Assembly: GCF_004025585.1 (NCBI RefSeq)
Contig: NZ_QTZO01000006.1
Span: 170,617 to 234,616 of the forward strand
DNA: 64,000 nucleotides
Direction of reading: 5' to 3'
Origin: Pseudodesulfovibrio sp. S3
GTDB lineage: Bacteria; Desulfobacterota; Desulfovibrionia; Desulfovibrionales; Desulfovibrionaceae
Below the pieces are notes generated by a model. It had not been told where the DNA came from. It made no database searches and saw only the letters and a program-made list of their open reading frames with translations. Of this stretch, positions 37,049-49,015 are shown in pieces (position 1 is the first letter of the stretch; each line of letters starts with the position of its first letter). The position numbers were made by a program, and so were the translations under genes.

Positions 37049-37810
37049 TTATTTCCAGGGTTCCATGAAGGAGTCGCTGGATTTGCCGGATTGGATGTGG
37101 GTGATGAGTGCGGAGCCGAACACGGCGGCGTCCATGAGTCCTTCGAATTCCTTGAGCTGGTCCGGGTGCTTGATGCCGAAACCGAGGGCGATGGGAATGT
37201 CGAAGACTTCCTTGGCTTCCGCGAGTTTTTCTTTGATCCGGGCGGGCAGGGATTCGCGCTGGCCGGTGGTGCCGAGCACGGACACGAAGTAGCAGAAGCC
37301 CTGTGCGCCTTGAGCGTAGAGTTTCATGCGTTCCCTGGTGGTGTTCAGGCCGACCAGGGGCACCAGGGAGATGCCGTGCGGGGTGAGGGCGTCCTTGACG
37401 AACTGGGATTCCTCGTGGGGCATGTCCGCGATGATCAGGCCGGAGACCCCGGCAGCTTCGCAGTCGGCGGCGAACGTGTCCAGCCCGTACTGGTAGACCG
37501 GGTTCAGGTAGCCCATGAGCAGCAGGGCTGCCTTGAACTGGCCTTTGCGTTTCTTGAGTTCCGTGAGAATCCACTCAAGGTTGATGCCGTCCTCAAGGCA
37601 TTTGAGGGACGCCTTTTCCACTACCGGGCCGTCGGCCACGGGGTCGGAGAAGGGCATGCCGATCTCGATGACGGATGCGCCTGCGGCGTCCAGTTCGGCC
37701 AGCTCCTTCCAGAACTGCTCCCGGTTCGGAAAACCGGCAGGCAGGAATGGAATGAGGCCGACTTTCCCCTGTTTATTCGCTTCTTCTATCTTTATTTGCA
37801 TTGGGTTCAT
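37049..37810 (-). CDS. trpA: tryptophan synthase alpha chain
   Basis: TrpA cleaves indole-3-glycerol phosphate to indole, which is channelled to TrpB. It is a 253-aa TIM barrel with catalytic Glu in VIEIGMPFSDP and Asp in PVADGPV. The start at 37810 has AAGGGG upstream. It is the last gene of the aromatic operon and is followed by a perfect palindrome. It is separated from trpB by 104 bp holding a REP-like element. Confidence 0.96.
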   Translation of the reverse strand: MNPMQIKIEEANKQGKVGLIPFLPAGFPNREQFWKELAELDAAGASVIEIGMPFSDPVADGPVVEKASLKCLEDGINLEWILTELKKRKGQFKAALLLMGYLNPVYQYGLDTFAADCEAAGVSGLIIADMPHEESQFVKDALTPHGISLVPLVGLNTTRERMKLYAQGAQGFCYFVSVLGTTGQRESLPARIKEKLAEAKEVFDIPIALGFGIKHPDQLKEFEGLMDAAVFGSALITHIQSGKSSDSFMEPWK

Positions 37811-37851
37811 TAGGTACCCCTTTTATTGTCGTTGACGTCGCAACGCGCGCC

Positions 37852-37909
37852 AAAAAGTTTTGGAGATTCCAAAGAACCTTTTTCAAAAGGTTCTTTGGCC
37901 GCCGGAGGC
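37852..37909. repeat. REP-like palindromic element, copy 2 (trpB-trpA gap)
   Basis: Read on the minus strand this is GCCTCCGGCGGC, a 14-bp perfect inverted repeat (37869-37898, centre of 2), then GAATCTCCAAAACTTTTT. It starts 5 bp after the trpB stop. It matches the hslU element at nearly every base; the stem differences (TT/AA there, CA/TG here) preserve pairing. Confidence 0.8.
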
Positions 37910-37914
37910 ATCCT

Positions 37915-39078
37915 CTATAAAATCTGATCGAGTATGCCGAGGTCCTTGTCGCCGCGTCCTGACAGGCAGACGAGCACGGACTTGCCCTTGAGCGCGTCCC
38001 TGTTCTCGATGGCATAGGCCACGGCATGGGAGGATTCCAGGGCCGGGATGATGCCTTCGCGCCGGGACAGTACCTTGAAGGCGTTGATGGCCTGGCTGTC
38101 ATTGATGGTCACGTAGGTGCCGCGTCCGGTTGCATGCAGGTGAGCGTGCTCCGGACCCACGCCGGGGTAGTCCAGGCCGGGAGCCACGGAGTGCGAGGGC
38201 ATGATCTGGCCGTCTTCGGTCTGGAGCAGCTTGCTCAGGGTGCCGTGCAGTATGCCGTCGGTGCCGTGGTCGAGCGGGGCGGAGCTGTCACAGCCCGGTT
38301 CGCCCGTTCCGGCGGCTTCCACGCCCACGAGTTTGACGGACGTATCCGGGATGAAATTGTGGAACATGCCGATGGCGTTGGACCCGCCGCCCACGCAGGC
38401 CACGACCACGTCGGGCAGTGCGCCTTCATTGCGGTCCATGAACTGCTGGCGCGCCTCCTTGGAGATGATCTGCTGGAACTGGCGGACCAGGGTCGGGAAG
38501 GGGTGCGGTCCGGCAGCGGTACCGAAACAGTAATGGGTGTTCTCCTGGTCGGAGAGCCAGCGCCGGAGCGCCTCGTTGATGGCGTCCTTGAGGGTCTTGG
38601 TGCCGGATTCCACGGACACGATCTCCGCGCCCATGAGCCGCATGCGGTTGACGTTGGGGGCCTGGCGCACGATGTCGGTGGCGCCCATGTAGATGACCGC
38701 CTTCATGTCGAGCATGGCGGCGGCGACCGTGGTGGCCACGCCGTGCATACCCGCGCCGGTTTCTGCCAGGAGCACGTCCTTGCCCATCATCTTGGCGAGC
38801 AGCCCCTGTCCCAGGGTGTTGTTGATCTTGTGCGCGCCCGAATGATTCAGATCTTCGCGCTTGAGCCACAGGTCCAGGCCGAGGTCCTTGGACAGGTTGG
38901 GGCAGTATGTGATGGCCGAGGGACGGCCCACGTTTTCCTTGAGCATATTGGTGAAGCGCGTCTGAAACTCCTCGGTGGGGAGGATGGATTCCATGGCCTC
39001 TTCAAGTTCGATCAGGGGCGGCATGAGCAGTTCGGGGATGAACTGGCCGCCGAAGTCGCCGAAATAACCTTTTTTCAT
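37915..39078 (-). CDS. trpB: tryptophan synthase beta chain
   Basis: This PLP enzyme condenses indole with serine to tryptophan. It has 387 aa. The PLP lysine region is LNHSGAHKINNTLGQ, the phosphate-binding loop is CVGGGSNAIG and the active-site glutamate follows ETGAGMHGV. AAGGAC is the ribosome-binding site. It lies 9 bp after trpF. It is a canonical TrpB1-type protein. Confidence 0.97.
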   Translation of the reverse strand: MKKGYFGDFGGQFIPELLMPPLIELEEAMESILPTEEFQTRFTNMLKENVGRPSAITYCPNLSKDLGLDLWLKREDLNHSGAHKINNTLGQGLLAKMMGKDVLLAETGAGMHGVATTVAAAMLDMKAVIYMGATDIVRQAPNVNRMRLMGAEIVSVESGTKTLKDAINEALRRWLSDQENTHYCFGTAAGPHPFPTLVRQFQQIISKEARQQFMDRNEGALPDVVVACVGGGSNAIGMFHNFIPDTSVKLVGVEAAGTGEPGCDSSAPLDHGTDGILHGTLSKLLQTEDGQIMPSHSVAPGLDYPGVGPEHAHLHATGRGTYVTINDSQAINAFKVLSRREGIIPALESSHAVAYAIENRDALKGKSVLVCLSGRGDKDLGILDQIL

Positions 39079-39087
39079 GATGCGTCC

Positions 39088-39714
39088 TTATTCCATTTCC
39101 GCGAGAATCTTGAACACTTCCCGCAGCTTTGTTTCGTCCTTGATGCCCGGTGCGGCCTCCACCCCGGAGTTGATATCCAGGCCGGGGGGATTAACTGCCA
39201 GGGCAGTCCGTATGTTGTCCGGCCCTAAGCCGCCTGCCAAGAACCAAGGTGTTTGTATTTCAATATCTTGGAGGATGCTGAAATCAATGGTCTTGCCTGT
39301 GCCGCCCTGGCCTTTGCCCCCTGCGTCAAGCAGGAAGTGGCCGCAGACCTCGGAGTAGTTGTCCAGGTCGCGGGACAGTGCCTGGGGCGAGTTGTAGGTG
39401 TCGGGCCAGAAGGCACGAATGACCCGGTCGGGGCCGATCTGCCAGCAGTAGTTCACGTCCTGGCCGCCGTGCAGTTGGGCCGCGTGCAGTCCGCACCGGT
39501 CCATTATTCCCATGACCTCGTCCGCGGTCTGGTCCACGAACACGCCGACCTTGGTGACCTTGCCGGTCTTGACCGAGGCCACGAAGTCGGGGTCCGCGTT
39601 GCGCGGGCTTTTGGAGTGGAAGATGAAACCGAGCAGATCCACGCCGAGATCGACGCAGAGCCTGACGTCTTCCATGCGGGTCATGCCGCAGACTTTGACC
39701 AGGGGGCGTGGCAT
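39088..39714 (-). CDS. trpF: phosphoribosylanthranilate isomerase
   Basis: This is a TIM-barrel Amadori isomerase of 208 aa. KVCGMTRMED carries the catalytic Cys and LLDAGGKGQGGTGKTIDF the Asp/phosphate loop. The ATG directly follows the trpC stop codon (TAGATG), so translation is coupled. Confidence 0.95.
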   Translation of the reverse strand: MPRPLVKVCGMTRMEDVRLCVDLGVDLLGFIFHSKSPRNADPDFVASVKTGKVTKVGVFVDQTADEVMGIMDRCGLHAAQLHGGQDVNYCWQIGPDRVIRAFWPDTYNSPQALSRDLDNYSEVCGHFLLDAGGKGQGGTGKTIDFSILQDIEIQTPWFLAGGLGPDNIRTALAVNPPGLDINSGVEAAPGIKDETKLREVFKILAEME

Positions 39715-40485
39715 CTACATTGCTCCGGTCAGTTCGGCCAGCTTGGCACCGGGATCTTCCGCTTCCATGAGGCAGGTGCCGATGAGCACGGCGTCGAATC
39801 CGAGCCCGGCCATCTCTTCCACCTGCGACCGCTGCGAGACGCCGCTGGCGCAGATCCACAATTCTTGGTCCTGCTTCTGTTTGACGAAACGGCGGCCTTG
39901 ATCCAGGGATATCTCAAGGGTGTCCAGGTCGCGGTTGTTCACCTGGATGATGTCTGCCCCGGCCTTGCGGGCCAGGTCCAGGTCATCCTGGTCAAAGATT
40001 TCCACCACCGGAGCCAGGCCGGACATGCGGCTGATTTCGATGAGCTGTTGCAGGTGGGTGGCGTCGTCGCACATGCGGGCGATGAGCAGCACGGCAGAGG
40101 CCGGGCTGCTTGCCGTCATGGCCACCTGGAGCGGATCGAAGATGAAGTCCTTGCGCAAAAGCGGGACACCGGGCTGGCTCATCATGAAGAGGAAGTCCGG
40201 GGTGCCGTGAAAGTACTTGTGTTCGGTCAGCACGGAAATGGCGGCAGCGCCGTTGGCAGCGTACATGTCAGCGAAATCAAGGGGGTTCAGGCTTTCGCGC
40301 AGGATGCCCTTGCTCGGGCTGGCCGGTTTGAATTCGGCAATGACGGCCCCTGGCCCCTTGGCCTTGACGGCATCTACAAACGAAGGGCGTTCTCCACGAT
40401 AGAGGGCGGGGATACGACCGTCTATGAAGTCCTTGCGCAGGGAATCTATTTCGAGCTGTTTCGCTTCTCTGAATTTATCCAACAT
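39715..40485 (-). CDS. trpC: indole-3-glycerol phosphate synthase
   Basis: This TIM-barrel enzyme of 256 aa closes the indole ring. Key segments are VIAEFKPASPSKG (catalytic Glu and Lys), LLRKDFIFDPLQ and IQVNNRDLDTLE. It is monofunctional, not fused to TrpF. The start overlaps the end of trpD by 11 bp. Confidence 0.96.
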   Translation of the reverse strand: MLDKFREAKQLEIDSLRKDFIDGRIPALYRGERPSFVDAVKAKGPGAVIAEFKPASPSKGILRESLNPLDFADMYAANGAAAISVLTEHKYFHGTPDFLFMMSQPGVPLLRKDFIFDPLQVAMTASSPASAVLLIARMCDDATHLQQLIEISRMSGLAPVVEIFDQDDLDLARKAGADIIQVNNRDLDTLEISLDQGRRFVKQKQDQELWICASGVSQRSQVEEMAGLGFDAVLIGTCLMEAEDPGAKLAELTGAM

Positions 40486-41482
40486 AGGGAATTCCTTTGG
40501 TAAGTCCTGTGTTTACCACGTCGCGGGCCATGTCGGCGCAATCCGCCATGCACCCCTTGCCTAAAAGATGGAGGCACCCTGCCAGGTTCAGGGCCGCCAT
40601 GTCCATCATGGCCCTGGGGCCTTTTCCGGCCAGGATATCCTTCAGTTTGGCCACGGCATCGTCCTTGCCGGAAACCATCACGTCCTTGGGGTCGTGCTTG
40701 GCGAAACCGAGCAGCTCGCCGTTGACGGTGGTCTTTTCCATGATTCCGTCCCGGATCACGTAGCCCCGGTTCACGCCCCAGGTGGTCAGTTCATCGAAGC
40801 CTCCGGCTCCCGCAAAGATCAAGGCGCGTTTCACGCCGGTCAGGAGCAGGGTTTCTCCCATCAGTTCCAGCTTGGTGGGGTCTCCCACGCCCATAAGTTG
40901 GTGGGAGGGTCGGGCCGGGTTGAGCAGGGGGCCCATGAAGTTGAACAGTGTTCGGATGCCGAGTTGCTGGCGCACGGGCATGACATGTTTGAAGGCGGGG
41001 TGATAGGCAGGCGCGAAGAGAAAGGCGAAGTTGTACCGTGCCAGTCCGGCGGCTGCTTCATCGGGCGTCTGGTTCAGGGGAATGCCTAGCGCTTCCAGGG
41101 CATCGGCAGAGCCGCAGGAGGAGGACAGGGCGCGGTTGCCGTGCTTGGCGACGGTGTATCCCATGTCCGCCAGGAACAGGGAGACTGCCGTGGAGTTGTT
41201 GAAGGAGCACTGGCCGTCGCCGCCCGTACCGCAGGTGTCCACTACCGGCTCACTGCGGTTGCCGTCAAAGCCGGGAATCTTGTTGGCATGGGCCAGGCCT
41301 GCCCGCACGCCTGCCGCCAGGTCCGTGGAGTCCTCACCCTTGGCGCGCAGTCCCATGAGGAAGGCGCCGGTCTGGGCCTCGGTCATGTCACCGTCCATGA
41401 GCTTGGTGAACATGAAGTCCGCCTGTTCGTCGCTCAGCGGCTGTCTCTGGGCCAGCAATTCGAGTATTTCGGAAATGGTCAT
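40475..41482 (-). CDS. trpD: anthranilate phosphoribosyltransferase
   Basis: The enzyme transfers phosphoribose from PRPP to anthranilate. It has 335 aa. The glycine-rich PRPP loop DTCGTGGDGQCSFN, the KHGNRALSSSCGSAD stretch and the metal site are intact. Its start overlaps trpG by 4 bp and its end overlaps trpC by 11 bp. Confidence 0.96.
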   Translation of the reverse strand: MTISEILELLAQRQPLSDEQADFMFTKLMDGDMTEAQTGAFLMGLRAKGEDSTDLAAGVRAGLAHANKIPGFDGNRSEPVVDTCGTGGDGQCSFNNSTAVSLFLADMGYTVAKHGNRALSSSCGSADALEALGIPLNQTPDEAAAGLARYNFAFLFAPAYHPAFKHVMPVRQQLGIRTLFNFMGPLLNPARPSHQLMGVGDPTKLELMGETLLLTGVKRALIFAGAGGFDELTTWGVNRGYVIRDGIMEKTTVNGELLGFAKHDPKDVMVSGKDDAVAKLKDILAGKGPRAMMDMAALNLAGCLHLLGKGCMADCADMARDVVNTGLTKGIPYVG

Positions 41483-42060
41483 GATATGTATCCTTTCAGG
41501 TTCAGGAAGTTCTGGAGGAGCTTGGGGCCGTCCGGGGTGAGGATGGATTCCGGGTGGAACTGGACTCCGTGCCAGGGGCGGTCCCTGTACTGGAGCCCCA
41601 TGATTTCGCCCCGCCGGGTCCGGGCCGTGACCTCGATCCTGTCGGCGGCCTTTTCGGCCGGGACAATGAGCGAATGGTAGCGGCAGACCGTGAACGGCGA
41701 AGGCAGCCCATGGAATATGCCCTGGCCCTCGTGCACCACCTCGGAGGTCTTGCCGTGCATGATGCGTTCGGCGCGCTCCACGGGCGCTCCCGCAAAATGC
41801 CCCAGGGTCTGGTGGCCCAGGCAGACGCCGAGCACCGGAACTTCCTTGGGCAGCCGGGCCAGGAATTCCAGGCAGAAGCCCGCGTTCTGCGGGTTGCTCG
41901 GGCCGGGAGAGAGGCAGACCCGTTCCAGGGTGCCGCTTTCGGCCAGCTCCAGGACCTTTTCGCGGTCGTTGCGGATGACTACCGGGTCGGCACCGAGCTG
42001 TTGGAAGGCCTGCACCAGATTGAAGGTGAAGGAGTCGAAATTATCGATCAGCAAAAACAT
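41479..42060 (-). CDS. trpG: anthranilate synthase component II (glutamine amidotransferase)
   Basis: This class I amidotransferase of 193 aa supplies ammonia to TrpE. The nucleophile Cys lies in VLGVCLGHQTLG and the His-Glu pair in VQFHPESIL. PABA-synthase PabA is closely related, but the trp context decides. It overlaps trpE by 20 bp and trpD by 4 bp. Confidence 0.95.
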   Translation of the reverse strand: MFLLIDNFDSFTFNLVQAFQQLGADPVVIRNDREKVLELAESGTLERVCLSPGPSNPQNAGFCLEFLARLPKEVPVLGVCLGHQTLGHFAGAPVERAERIMHGKTSEVVHEGQGIFHGLPSPFTVCRYHSLIVPAEKAADRIEVTARTRRGEIMGLQYRDRPWHGVQFHPESILTPDGPKLLQNFLNLKGYIS

Positions 42061-43498
42061 CGGTGCCTCCCTTTCCTGTGATGACTTCGAGGATCACGCG
42101 GGCCTTGTTGTGGCATTCGTTCCATTCGGCTTCGGGATCGGAATCGTAGACGATTCCCGCGCCTGCCTGCCAATGGCACTGGCCGTCGCGAATCCACATG
42201 GACCGGATGGTGATGCCCGTGTCCAGGGAGACAACGCCGTTGTCCAGGCCCATCCAGCCGATGCAGCCGCCATAGGGACCACGGTCCTGAGGCTCCAGCT
42301 CGGCGATGATTTCCATGGCCCTGATCTTGGGTGCGCCGGACAGGGTTCCCGCCGGGAAGGTCGCCTGGAGCACGTCCACGCCGTCCAACCCGTCCTTGAG
42401 TTCGCCTTCCACATAGGAAGTGAGGTGCATGACGTGAGAGAACCGTTCGACGTTCATGAATTTTTCCACTGTGACCGTGCCGGGCTTGGATATGCGGCCC
42501 AGGTCGTTGCGGCCCAGGTCCACGAGCATGACGTGCTCGGCCCGCTCCTTGGGATCGGCCAGCAGTTCCTCTTCCAGGCGGATGTCTTCCTTTTCGGTTT
42601 CGCCCCTCCAGCGTGTACCGGCAATGGGGCGTACCTCAAGCTGTCCGGCGGCGGACCGGACCATCATCTCGGGCGAGGAGCCGAGCAGGGTGGTGCCGCA
42701 GGTCTTGCCCATGGACGGGCAGTCCGGGAATTTCATGTAGAACATGAACGGGGAGGGGTTGGCCTGCCTGAGGCGGCGGTAAATCTTGAATGGCTCATCC
42801 GGCAGCGGCACGGAGAAGTGGGTGGACAGGACCACCTGAATGCATTCGCCCTCTGCGATCAGTTCTTTGCATCGTTCCACACCGGCCATGTATTCTTCTT
42901 TTTCGGGATACACCTTGGGCTTCCCGACCTCGGGAGCGGTCAGGTCTGCGCCCCATTGGATGGGGGCGGGCATGGGCGTGGCTCCTTTGTCAAGGCTCAG
43001 GTAGCAGCATGAATGGCGCAGGTGGTCGAACAGTACCAACTGGCCGGGCAGGACCAGACATGCTTCGGCATTGGCCGGTTTGCACACCTCGGTCAGCTTG
43101 CGCTCGAACATGCCTGCCACACCGTAACCGAAATAGCCGTAGAGGCCTCGGGTCAGACCGGGCAGGCCGTCGCGGACATTGCCGCCTGTCGTCTCCTGTT
43201 TGATGGAGAGCATCTCCACGGCCTTTTTGATGCCGGGGAGGTAGTCCATGCCCTCCAGCTCCTTGAGCGGGGCCAGGCGGTCGTCGTTGACGTCCACCAC
43301 CAGCTTGCCGTCCACGGGATGGAGCATGAGCCGGTAGTCGAAGGCGATGAGGGAGTATCGGCCGAGGCGTCCGTCCACCTCTGCCGATTCCAGCAGGATG
43401 CCGGGTTGGTCGCCCACCAGGCCCATATAGAGGGAGATGGTCGTTTGCACGTCGGCAGGCATCCATTTGCCGTGCTGCGTGAGAATGATTTTTTCCAT
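42041..43498 (-). CDS. trpE: anthranilate synthase component I
   Basis: This chorismate-utilising enzyme of 485 aa makes anthranilate. The conserved C-terminal blocks are GGCIGWMG, PAGTLSGAPKIRAMEII and the metal-binding Glu in QAGAGIVYDSDPEAE. The Trp-feedback site region (LLESAEVDGRLGRYSLIA) is present. The start at 43498 has AAGGAT upstream; a GTG 20 codons earlier lies in the leader. It is the first structural trp gene and sits downstream of the tyrA-trpE attenuator. Confidence 0.96.
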   Translation of the reverse strand: MEKIILTQHGKWMPADVQTTISLYMGLVGDQPGILLESAEVDGRLGRYSLIAFDYRLMLHPVDGKLVVDVNDDRLAPLKELEGMDYLPGIKKAVEMLSIKQETTGGNVRDGLPGLTRGLYGYFGYGVAGMFERKLTEVCKPANAEACLVLPGQLVLFDHLRHSCCYLSLDKGATPMPAPIQWGADLTAPEVGKPKVYPEKEEYMAGVERCKELIAEGECIQVVLSTHFSVPLPDEPFKIYRRLRQANPSPFMFYMKFPDCPSMGKTCGTTLLGSSPEMMVRSAAGQLEVRPIAGTRWRGETEKEDIRLEEELLADPKERAEHVMLVDLGRNDLGRISKPGTVTVEKFMNVERFSHVMHLTSYVEGELKDGLDGVDVLQATFPAGTLSGAPKIRAMEIIAELEPQDRGPYGGCIGWMGLDNGVVSLDTGITIRSMWIRDGQCHWQAGAGIVYDSDPEAEWNECHNKARVILEVITGKGGTDVFADR

Positions 43499-43541: not shown

Positions 43542-43669
43542 CGTCTCCAAAGCCTCACGTTTTTTTAGAGCTTTTAATGATAGGGGCGAGGGATGACCTG
43601 CCACCCTTTGATTTTCTTCCTGTTTTCAGATTTCTTTCACGTACCGTTCATGGTGTTTCTCCCTAAAAA

Positions 43670-43777
43670 TAATGAAACCGCACCCTTGGTCGGGGTGCGG
43701 CTTCGGTTACAAATGTAATCGTGTGCCCGGCAATGTGCCGCACCCCATTAATATGTTTCGTCGCTACGCCACCACCA
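43670..43777 (-). promoter_or_regulatory. predicted Trp attenuator using the 3' end of tyrA as its sensor
   Basis: On the minus strand, tyrA ends with three adjacent TGG codons (43769-43777), then six codons, then TAA (43750-43748). Segment 1, TGGGGTGCGGC (43747-43737), follows at once. Segment 2, GCCGCACCCCG (43701-43691), can pair with segment 1 over 11 bp. Alternatively it pairs, with its GAA flank, to segment 3, GGGTGCGGTTTC (43685-43674), over 12 bp with loop CGACCAA. The second pairing is followed by ATTATTTTT and is a terminator. A ribosome ending at the stop codon covers segment 1 and favours the terminator; one stalled at the Trp codons leaves segment 1 free and favours the antiterminator. 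Confidence 0.75.
43674..43704 (-). terminator. terminator hairpin between tyrA and trpE
   Basis: A 12-bp stem (core CCGCACCC and its complement) is followed by a T-rich tail ending about 10 bp after the stem. It lies inside an otherwise tightly packed operon, which argues for regulated rather than final termination. Confidence 0.85.
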
Positions 43778-44518
43778 CTGCGCCCGGTCGGCCAGCAGAT
43801 CGAGATCGCCGCCTGCGGCCAGGCTCAGATAGGACATGTATTTGCGGCTGACTTCCTGCATGTAGGGGTTGGCCTCGGAGATGACTTCGAACAATTCGGT
43901 ATCCTTGGTCAGCATCTTGGCCGCCGAGTCCAGCCTGCGCTGAAAGGACGGGGTCACGAAATTTTCAATGCCGTCAACGTCTCTGGCAGCGGCCAGATAC
44001 GCCACGGTGGTCGTGTAATTCAGCCCCTGTACGAAGGCCATTGCACGGTCGTGTTCCTGGGGTGTGGACGCGAAGCAGTGGTAACCGCAACGCTTGAACA
44101 GGGCTGCCACGGCAACTGCAGCATCCACATCGTCTTCATGGCCGGGCATGATCGCCACCTTGGGTTCGAAACCGTCCGGGATGACCGGACCGAAGAGCGG
44201 GTGGGTACCCACCACCGGGCCATCGTACCGGTCGAGCATGGCCTTGAGCGGGAGCACCTTCACGGAACCGACATCGCAGAGGATGGTCGGCGGGGTCAGG
44301 TGGGGCAGCATCCGATCCAGCACCGCATCCATTGCGGTCACCGGCACACTGAGCAGGAGCAGGTCGCAACCGTGCAGCGCTTCACGGACATCGTCATCCG
44401 TGAAGGGGCGGTTGAGCTGCGTCACCTTGAGGCCGAGTTGGGTAAAGTCTCTAGCGAAGAGCCCACCCATCTGGCCATTGGCACCCACGATGGTGATCTT
44501 GTATATTCCTGCTGACAT
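43748..44518 (-). CDS. tyrA: prephenate dehydrogenase
   Basis: This NAD(P)-dependent enzyme decarboxylates prephenate to 4-hydroxyphenylpyruvate for tyrosine synthesis. It has 256 aa with a Rossmann start KITIVGANGQMGGLFA, catalytic His region VGTHPLFGP and an all-helical C-terminal half. The start at 44518 (MSAGIYKI) fits the family, but its ribosome-binding site is weak; it lies 17 bp after aroA. The very C-terminus reads AQWWWRSDETY: three consecutive Trp (248-250) placed just before the stop, an unusual ending that appears to serve the downstream attenuator. Confidence 0.92.
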   Translation of the reverse strand: MSAGIYKITIVGANGQMGGLFARDFTQLGLKVTQLNRPFTDDDVREALHGCDLLLLSVPVTAMDAVLDRMLPHLTPPTILCDVGSVKVLPLKAMLDRYDGPVVGTHPLFGPVIPDGFEPKVAIMPGHEDDVDAAVAVAALFKRCGYHCFASTPQEHDRAMAFVQGLNYTTTVAYLAAARDVDGIENFVTPSFQRRLDSAAKMLTKDTELFEVISEANPYMQEVSRKYMSYLSLAAGGDLDLLADRAQWWWRSDETY

Positions 44519-48844: not shown

Positions 48845-48882
48845 AAAAAACAAGGGCCGCCGGCTTTCGCCCGCGGCCCTTG
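48845..48882 (-). terminator. attenuator terminator upstream of the aromatic operon
   Basis: On the minus strand CAAGGGCCGC pairs with GCGGCCCTTG (48873-48882 with 48851-48860), with a GGGCGAAAGCCG cap and TTTTTT after the stem. It lies between the leader peptide and the first gene. Confidence 0.92.
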
Positions 48883-48940
48883 AAGAAGTTCTTTTCAGCT
48901 TGTGTGATCCACCAACAGGTTACACAGCACCTCTTCCAAG
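48879..48940 (-). promoter_or_regulatory. predicted antiterminator pairing in the aromatic leader
   Basis: CTTGGAAGAG (48940-48931), inside the leader peptide's last codons, can pair with CTTCTTCAAG (48888-48879) over 10 positions with one mismatch and two G-U pairs. The second segment overlaps the first four bases of the terminator stem, so the two structures exclude each other. A ribosome stalled at the aromatic codons leaves CTTGGAAGAG free; one at the stop codon covers it. A competing GCTTG/CAAGC and TGTG/CACA pairing also exists in 48905-48944. Confidence 0.6.
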
Positions 48941-49015
48941 CCCGCGAGCGTGGTTATACCAATACCAAAAGTAAAAGTTGGAAAAGTATGCGTTGGAAAC
49001 TGTGGTGGCGTTCAT
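48920..49015 (-). CDS. aromatic amino-acid leader peptide (31 aa)
   Basis: ATG at 49015 opens 31 codons ending in TAA at 48922-48920. Residues 10-20 read YFSNFYFWYWY, so nine of eleven are Tyr (4), Phe (3) or Trp (2), a composition not expected by chance. The ORF ends 38 bp before a strong terminator and precedes the twelve-gene aro-phe-tyr-trp operon. It fits the leader peptides of the his, phe and trp operons of enteric bacteria but senses all three aromatic residues at once. No clear Shine-Dalgarno precedes it, which is its weakest point. Confidence 0.8.
   Translation of the reverse strand: MNATTVSNAYFSNFYFWYWYNHARGLGRGAV

What the first reader, a model, noticed from the sequence alone, without database searches (positions are those of the whole stretch)
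43670..43777. A Trp attenuator whose sensing codons are the last codons of tyrA
Seen: tyrA ends QWWWRSDETY-stop, with TGG TGG TGG at 43777-43769. One base after the stop begins TGGGGTGCGGC, which pairs over 11 bp with GCCGCACCCCG at 43701-43691. That same segment pairs over 12 bp with GGGTGCGGTTTC at 43685-43674 to make a terminator with a T-rich tail. Segments 1 and 3 are near-copies competing for segment 2. Known: trp operons of enteric bacteria use a short leader peptide with tandem Trp codons and exclusive hairpins. Inference: here a full metabolic enzyme gene replaces the leader peptide. With enough Trp the ribosome reaches the tyrA stop, hides segment 1 and the terminator forms; when it stalls at the Trp codons the antiterminator forms and trpEGDCFBA is transcribed. 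I know of no described case of a structural gene's C-terminus used this way.
Basis: partly seen in the sequence, partly recalled or inferred. Interest (0 to 1): 0.93.

Follow-up and report, generated by a model that had tools for sequence, protein, structure and literature searches.

The report
Enzyme tail as tryptophan sensor
In most of the Desulfovibrionales genomes examined here in which the tryptophan genes directly follow the tyrosine-enzyme gene tyrA, that gene ends in three or four tryptophan codons followed by RNA segments that can pair in two competing ways, so the end of a working enzyme gene likely doubles as the leader peptide that would switch the tryptophan genes on when tryptophan runs short.

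Summary
Confirmed and extended. In the window (a Pseudodesulfovibrio-type genome) TGG TGG TGG are the only Trp codons of tyrA, followed by the stop, segments 1, 2, 3 and a T-rich tail. Among 150 tyrA loci chosen from 308 tyrA-bearing genomes of the order, trpE follows tyrA in 112; 93 of these have a U-tailed terminator, and 92 of the 93 carry three or four tandem Trp codons. Segment 1 starts 10-18 nt after the last Trp codon (medians of 25 genera, SD 1.8) while its place relative to the tyrA stop floats (SD 7.2); it often lies inside tyrA. Native segment 1-2 pairing beats swapped pairing on average. Where trpE is not beside tyrA, 18 of 22 trpE loci carry a short leader ORF with WW or WWW and the same attenuator; in one MAG that leader is a remnant of tyrA's 3' end. 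The Trp response in vivo is untested. WWW without a terminator also occurs, so the tail may have a protein role too. Coupling a structural gene's end to an attenuator has a precedent (E. coli rph-pyrE, UTP). New variant of ribosome-mediated trp attenuation, probably ancestral to the order.

The parts
43748..44518 (-). tyrA (prephenate dehydrogenase family), the gene whose 3' end is the predicted leader
   Evidence: NCBIfam prephenate dehydrogenase models, best E 2.2e-33, all below their curated cut-offs; ORF
43769..43777 (-). three tandem Trp codons (TGG x3), the only Trp codons of tyrA
   Evidence: three or four tandem Trp codons in 92 of 93 terminator-bearing junctions
43748..43750 (-). tyrA stop codon TAA
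43737..43747 (-). segment 1 (antiterminator 5' arm)
   Evidence: pairs with segment 2, -25.6 kcal/mol; 95.1% of cells paired in 25 aligned loci of the genus
43691..43701 (-). segment 2, shared by antiterminator and terminator
43674..43685 (-). segment 3 (terminator 3' arm; its 5' arm is 43704-43693)
   Evidence: 12-bp helix with 96.3% of cells paired in 25 aligned loci of the genus
43664..43673 (-). T-rich tail of the terminator (ATTATTTTTA)
42041..43498 (-). trpE, first gene of the block predicted to be regulated
   Evidence: TIGR00564 E 2.4e-133, below its curated cut-off
37049..42060 (-). trpG, trpD, trpC, trpF, trpB, trpA downstream of trpE
   Evidence: NCBIfam models: trpG, trpD, trpB, trpA over a curated cut-off; trpC and trpF only below theirs
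43574..43651 (-). conserved 25-codon ORF with an in-frame TGA (43639-43637) between terminator and trpE; role unknown, found only in the window's genus
   Evidence: 23 sequences (22 distinct), TGA in 23 of 23, third codon positions most variable
48920..49015 (-). front leader ORF MNATTVSNAYFSNFYFWYWYNHARGLGRGAV of the aro-trp supraoperon
   Evidence: a similar ORF followed by a hairpin in 10 of 10 other genomes sampled
48845..48882 (-). terminator-like hairpin with T run that follows the front leader ORF

Best explanation
The 3' end of tyrA, with its three tandem Trp codons, likely serves as the leader peptide of a ribosome-mediated transcription attenuator that would raise transcription of the downstream trpEGDCFBA genes when charged tRNA-Trp is scarce. 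Shown by sequence and comparison: the codons, the three segments, their spacing, their changes in step between species, and their occurrence across the order. Inferred: when Trp is ample the ribosome runs to the tyrA stop and its body covers much of segment 1, so segment 2 pairs with segment 3 and RNA polymerase terminates at the T tail, about 80 nt past the stop. When Trp is scarce the ribosome stalls on the Trp codons; by recalled footprint sizes its leading edge would end about 10 nt past the last Trp codon, just short of segment 1, so segment 1 takes segment 2 and the polymerase reads on into trpE. The tail probably also has a protein role, since WW is kept in TyrA proteins without an attenuator.
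For: Terminator and at least three tandem Trp in 92 of 93 junctions, six families, against 9 of 19 trpE-adjacent loci without terminator (Fisher p 1.7e-8, not corrected for descent). Segment 1 to last Trp codon: genus medians 10-18 nt, SD 1.8 in 25 genera (single loci 8-22), against a mean SD of 13.8, minimum 8.9 of 300, in shuffles; segment 1 to stop: SD 7.2, genus medians -23 to +10. Native duplex mean -22.4 versus -17.5 kcal/mol when segments are swapped between genera, Wilcoxon p 1.6e-5 and 6.1e-5. Segment 1 takes up 57-95% of the terminator 5'-arm pairs, genus means, median 75%. Changes on both sides in both helices within the genus. Stop-to-hairpin distance at least 20 nt in 89 of 91, as stated for amino-acid attenuators in PMC4824070 (passages). 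Free leader ORFs with the same module in 18 of 22 trpE loci away from tyrA, and a tyrA-derived leader in L259. Full-length TyrA with the attenuator: no Trp outside the tail in 49 of 54; without: 9 of 36. No WW in the last 55 residues of the 25 best-scoring TyrA loci from outside the order.
Against: No expression data. WWW persists without a terminator in 9 of 19 other trpE-adjacent loci and where trpE is not adjacent. The tree-based test has only 5 supported independent pairs: on average 2.8 go the same way, 0.0 the other way, median p 0.25. 9 of 91 duplexes do not beat shuffles at 0.05. In some genera swapped partners pair as well as the native one: g27 (12 of 24 foreign segments 2), g13 (11 of 24 and 12 of 24), g34 (19 of 24 foreign segments 1), g49 (11 of 24), g58 (10 of 24). 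In 9 of 25 genera segment 1 takes up at most 62% of the terminator arm, so exclusion is partial there. The whole region folds only moderately better than shuffles. The Trp-free-body comparison is not corrected for descent.
Confidence: 0.87

Rival explanations
1. The junction holds a partial intrinsic terminator that only lowers trp expression relative to the aro genes; the Trp run is a TyrA protein feature and segment 1 is a chance near-repeat of segment 3.
For: WW or WWW is kept in TyrA proteins that have no terminator behind them; the Trp residues lie at the end of the last predicted helix, 239-251.
Against: Segment 1 keeps its distance to the Trp codons (SD 1.8 nt over 25 genera) while the stop codon moves; native duplexes beat swapped ones on average; free leader ORFs repeat the module without a TyrA body.
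Confidence: 0.06
2. Translation-coupled attenuation, but responding to general ribosome speed or presence (as in rph-pyrE) rather than to Trp.
For: A structural gene end plus an intercistronic terminator resembles rph-pyrE (passages of PMC2784333).
Against: Three or four tandem Trp codons at a fixed distance from segment 1; the genes behind make Trp; a separate leader with Phe, Tyr and Trp codons already precedes the aro part; in rph-pyrE moving the stop closer to the attenuator is thought to relieve it, whereas here the terminator lies at least 20 nt from the stop in 89 of 91.
Confidence: 0.06
3. A Trp-binding RNA, a T-box or a TRAP-like protein controls the terminator.
For: T-box and TRAP control of trp genes in other phyla (recalled; TRAP and T-box also appear in the papers listed).
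Against: Rfam 15 at gathering score finds only two tRNAs in the window; the conserved features are codons and segment pairing. TRAP itself was not searched for.
Confidence: 0.01

Closest known systems
trp operon attenuator of enteric bacteria (trpL; Rfam RF00513 Trp_leader)
   Same: tandem Trp codons, stop, competing hairpins, U-tailed terminator, trpE downstream
   Different: the leader is the end of a 256-aa enzyme gene; three segments rather than four in the core; segment 1 lies downstream of the Trp codons, often within tyrA; no Rfam match at gathering score
rph-pyrE attenuator of E. coli
   Same: the 3' end of a structural gene and the place of its stop codon govern an intercistronic attenuator (passages of PMC2784333)
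   Different: responds to pyrimidine (UTP) supply, without regulatory codons; a stop closer to the attenuator is thought to relieve it
Desulfovibrio vulgaris aro-trp supraoperon attenuator listed in PMC1173090 Table 7
   Same: same kind of supraoperon: aroA'-aroB'-aroQ-pheA-aroF-tyrA followed by the trp operon
   Different: the listed attenuator stands before aroA'; in the passages shown none is reported between tyrA and trp

Membership tests
Ribosome-mediated amino-acid attenuator (trp type) | tandem codons for the operon's product near the end of an ORF | tested here: met
   at least three tandem Trp in 92 of 93 junctions
Ribosome-mediated amino-acid attenuator (trp type) | alternative pairings that share a segment with a U-tailed terminator | tested here: met
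   partial overlap in 9 of 25 genera
Ribosome-mediated amino-acid attenuator (trp type) | terminator more than 20 nt from the leader stop | tested here: met
   at least 20 nt in 89 of 91; rule from PMC4824070 passages
Ribosome-mediated amino-acid attenuator (trp type) | pause or protector hairpin (1:2) that synchronises ribosome and polymerase | tested here: inconclusive
   a short GGC-loop-GCC pattern from segment 1 in 26 of 34 loci of the genus, absent in 8; not sought in other genera
Ribosome-mediated amino-acid attenuator (trp type) | Trp-dependent transcription read-through | not testable with these tools
   needs an experiment
Rfam RF00513 Trp_leader | covariance-model match over gathering score | tested here: not met
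   only two tRNA matches in the window
T-box | T-box covariance-model match over gathering score | tested here: not met
rph-pyrE type attenuation | control by UTP through polymerase pausing | not testable with these tools
   only the architecture was compared

The most novel reading that the evidence does not exclude
An enzyme gene is itself the amino-acid sensor of the next operon across a bacterial order, its body largely free of Trp and its tail loaded with it; and the stand-alone trp leader peptides of Desulfovibrio and relatives are amputated enzyme tails, with a surviving intermediate (L259: a 68-codon stretch of tyrA's 3' end kept as a leader). Leader peptides would thus be born from enzyme C-termini.
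Probability: 0.55. Interest if true: 0.9.

Novelty: new variant of a known kind. Interest (0 to 1): 0.83.

Why it matters
It would show that an attenuation leader need not be a throw-away peptide: a metabolic enzyme's own C-terminus can carry the sensing codons, which ties the sequence of one pathway's enzyme to the control of another pathway. The detached leaders and the L259 remnant would give a direct route by which leader peptides arise. It also means that surveys of regulatory RNA that look only between genes, or only at short ORFs, would miss this class.

Tried and rejected
Rejected: chance pairing (swap and shuffle controls); T-box or known trp leader; a promoter between the end of tyrA and the terminator: of the three promoter-like sites, one on this strand lies upstream of tyrA (44606-44577, 10 of 12; its transcripts would still cross the attenuator), one is a weak 9-of-12 site downstream of the terminator (43604-43577, inside the conserved TGA ORF), one is on the other strand. 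A selenocysteine reading of the TGA ORF was considered: no conserved structure follows the TGA (RNAalifold -1.33, 12.5% of column shuffles as good), and selB is over its cut-off in 34 of 36 genomes of the genus, with and without the ORF, so it does not discriminate. Two weak hits of that ORF outside the genus (L114, L115) were read and set aside as chance.

Sampling and dropped rows: 308 of 348 genomes had tyrA; I examined 150 loci (30 best, 60 chosen by hand over genera chosen), not all 308. The terminator script flagged 92; L079 was dropped as spurious, and L019 and L043, whose hairpins it missed, were added by eye, giving 93; energies and distances use 91. The alignment holds 25 of the 36 loci of the genus: nine were left out (those with segment 1 mainly inside tyrA, L009 and L019) and L023 and L024 as near-copies of L022. 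L009, L067 and L162 (contig ends) were left out of the tree (147 loci). The Trp count uses the 90 of 150 loci with at least 215 residues. Of 25 trpE matches, L278-L280 (partial or second matches) were not analysed; L256, L267, L270 and L271 did not show the module clearly and are the 4 misses of 22. The outgroup tails are the 25 best-scoring of 104 matching genomes outside the order.

Literature: of the searches that bear on a tyrA-encoded trp leader (open-licence PMC only; listings showed 20 of 171, 15 of 96, 15 of 15, 0, 15 of 21 and 10 of 52 papers) no listed title or abstract describes one. Passages, not whole papers, were seen of PMC1173090, PMC5343134, PMC3766115, PMC2784333, PMC4824070, PMC2965389 and PMC1183508. 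A review that I would have checked (PubMed id 18262465) is not held.

Full report
What is there. On the minus strand the window carries an aro-trp supraoperon: a 2-amino-3,7-dideoxy-D-threo-hept-6-ulosonate synthase gene, chorismate mutase/prephenate dehydratase, tyrA, then trpE, G, D, C, F, B, A (the two aro genes in between, at 47992-46997 and upstream of 44536, are read and named from memory). tyrA ends QWWWRSDETY-stop. The coordinates of the finding hold. The three Trp residues are the only Trp in the protein.

Survey of the order. TyrA was found in 308 of 348 genomes. In 150 loci examined, trpE lies next to tyrA in 112. Of these, 93 have a strong hairpin with a T-rich tail in the gap; 87 end with WWW, 5 with WWWW and 1 (L080) with WW. 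Of the remaining 19, ten have gaps under 40 nt or overlaps (WW in 7, WWW in 3) and nine have longer gaps without such a terminator (WW in 3, WWW in 6). The attenuator occurs in 25 genera of six families. Named loci show it in Pseudodesulfovibrio, Humidesulfovibrio, Halodesulfovibrio, Nitratidesulfovibrio, Desulfomicrobium, Desulfonatronum, Desulfonatronovibrio and Desulfonauticus; the four named Solidesulfovibrio loci, where tyrA and trpE overlap by 4 nt, have WW and no room for it.

Spacing. The strongest complement of the terminator 5' arm, sought anywhere between the last Trp codon and the hairpin, starts 10-18 nt after the last Trp codon in the medians of 25 genera (SD 1.8; single loci 8-22), but between 23 nt before and 10 nt after the first base of the stop codon (SD 7.2). 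In shuffled stretches the SD is 13.8 on average and never below 8.9 in 300 rounds. Thus the RNA segment is tied to the Trp codons and not to the end of the protein. L048 shows this: its tyrA stop comes only two codons after WWW, yet the segment stands 16 nt after the Trp codons, beyond the stop. By recalled footprint sizes, a ribosome stalled with the last Trp codon in its A site would end about 10 nt past that codon, just before segment 1; at the stop it would cover much of segment 1 in most genera, though in L048 it would reach only its start. This part is inference.

Pairing. Duplexes beat dinucleotide shuffles at p<=0.05 in 82 of 91 loci, at p<=0.01 in 57. With one locus per genus, native pairs average -22.4 kcal/mol and swapped pairs -17.5 (Wilcoxon p 1.6e-5 for foreign segment 2, 6.1e-5 for foreign segment 1). 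Not every genus shows it: in g27, g13, g34, g49 and g58 ten or more of 24 foreign partners do as well in at least one direction. Segment 1 takes up 57-95% of the terminator 5'-arm pairs (genus means, median 75%; at most 62% in nine genera). Within the genus, 25 aligned sequences keep 95.1% of antiterminator and 96.3% of terminator cells paired, with changes on both sides at 3 and 4 pairs (2 of 500 and 1 of 500 shuffles as high; partners slid by 1-3 columns drop to 31-50% paired); in L016 all three segments carry the matching change. The sequences are related, so these counts are not probabilities.

Natural experiment. In 30 genomes chosen because trpE was not found beside tyrA, a trpE match was found in 24. 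Of 22 loci analysed, 18 have a short ORF with two or three tandem Trp codons before trpE, followed by segment 1 (11-17 nt after the last Trp) and a terminator, for example MNSFSNTISNSFKGWWWRIQLRGGDVRA. Their tails resemble TyrA tails (WWWRSHTERGGVRPS in L082), by eye. In L259 (a MAG of the genus coded g46, whose tails match named Desulfomicrobium records) the leader is a 66-codon ORF inside a 68-codon stretch that is 63% identical to the C-terminus of that genome's full-length TyrA, which lies on another contig (L153). Read by eye, it stands behind an aromatic-rich front leader ORF and a terminator-like hairpin. This rests on one MAG. Outside the order, the 25 best-scoring TyrA loci have no WW in their last 55 residues, so the tail probably arose with the order; the direction (tail to leader) is inferred.

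Trp-poor body. Among full-length TyrA sequences, 49 of 54 with the attenuator have no Trp outside the tail, against 9 of 36 without (Fisher 1.3e-10); this is not corrected for descent, and two of those 9 (L009, L162) are contig-end cases that show the hairpin. On a FastTree tree of 147 loci the attenuator changes at least 11 times and the third Trp at least 12 times, but only 5 independent pairs are well supported and the test is not significant. In the predicted structure (mean pLDDT 89.5) the Trp run lies at the end of the last helix, 239-251, and the last residues are of low confidence, so a protein role for part of the tail is possible.

Two sensors in series. The supraoperon begins with a leader ORF rich in Phe, Tyr and Trp (MNATTVSNAYFSNFYFWYWYNHARGLGRGAV, 49015-48920) and a terminator-like hairpin; a similar ORF is present in 10 of 10 further genomes sampled from six genera. 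The likely logic: a general aromatic attenuator in front of the common and Tyr/Phe genes, and a Trp-specific one at the tyrA end for the trp genes. PMC1173090 (passages) lists an attenuator before aroA' for D. vulgaris; none at tyrA-trpE was seen in those passages.

Comparison. It works like the enteric trp attenuator and meets its testable features, but it does not match Rfam's Trp_leader at gathering score and its leader is an enzyme gene. rph-pyrE is the nearest precedent found for a structural gene in that role. Hence: new variant of a known kind.

Limits. No expression data; segment positions come from energy minimisation; the survey covers 150 of 308 genomes, chosen for breadth and not at random.

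Noticed in passing
window 43651-43574 (minus strand); L091-L113: A 25-codon ORF with a ribosome-site-like sequence between the terminator and trpE has an in-frame TGA as codon 5 in 23 of 23 sequences (23 of 36 genomes of the genus), yet the 20 codons after it vary mainly at third positions (0.35 against 0.11 and 0.08), as if translated through the TGA. No conserved structure after the TGA, no Pfam or NCBIfam match. Unexplained.
   Followed up: partly
window 49015-48845 (minus strand); L311-L320: Front leader ORF with an FYFWYWY-type run and a terminator-like hairpin before the aro genes, present in 10 of 10 other genomes sampled.
   Followed up: partly
L259 about 1187-1390: A 68-codon remnant of tyrA's 3' end kept as the trp leader, behind what looks like the front leader, with full tyrA on another contig: apparent loss of the aro genes from the supraoperon (one MAG).
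   Followed up: partly
L009, L011, L013, L015, L017: In these congeners the TGA ORF keeps its start (M-x-D-T-TGA-K) while the rest no longer resembles the conserved sequence (by eye).
   Followed up: no
L049, L053, L056, L057, L060, L069: trpE-adjacent tyrA with WWW but no U-tailed terminator found in the gap; whether another control works there is unknown.
   Followed up: no
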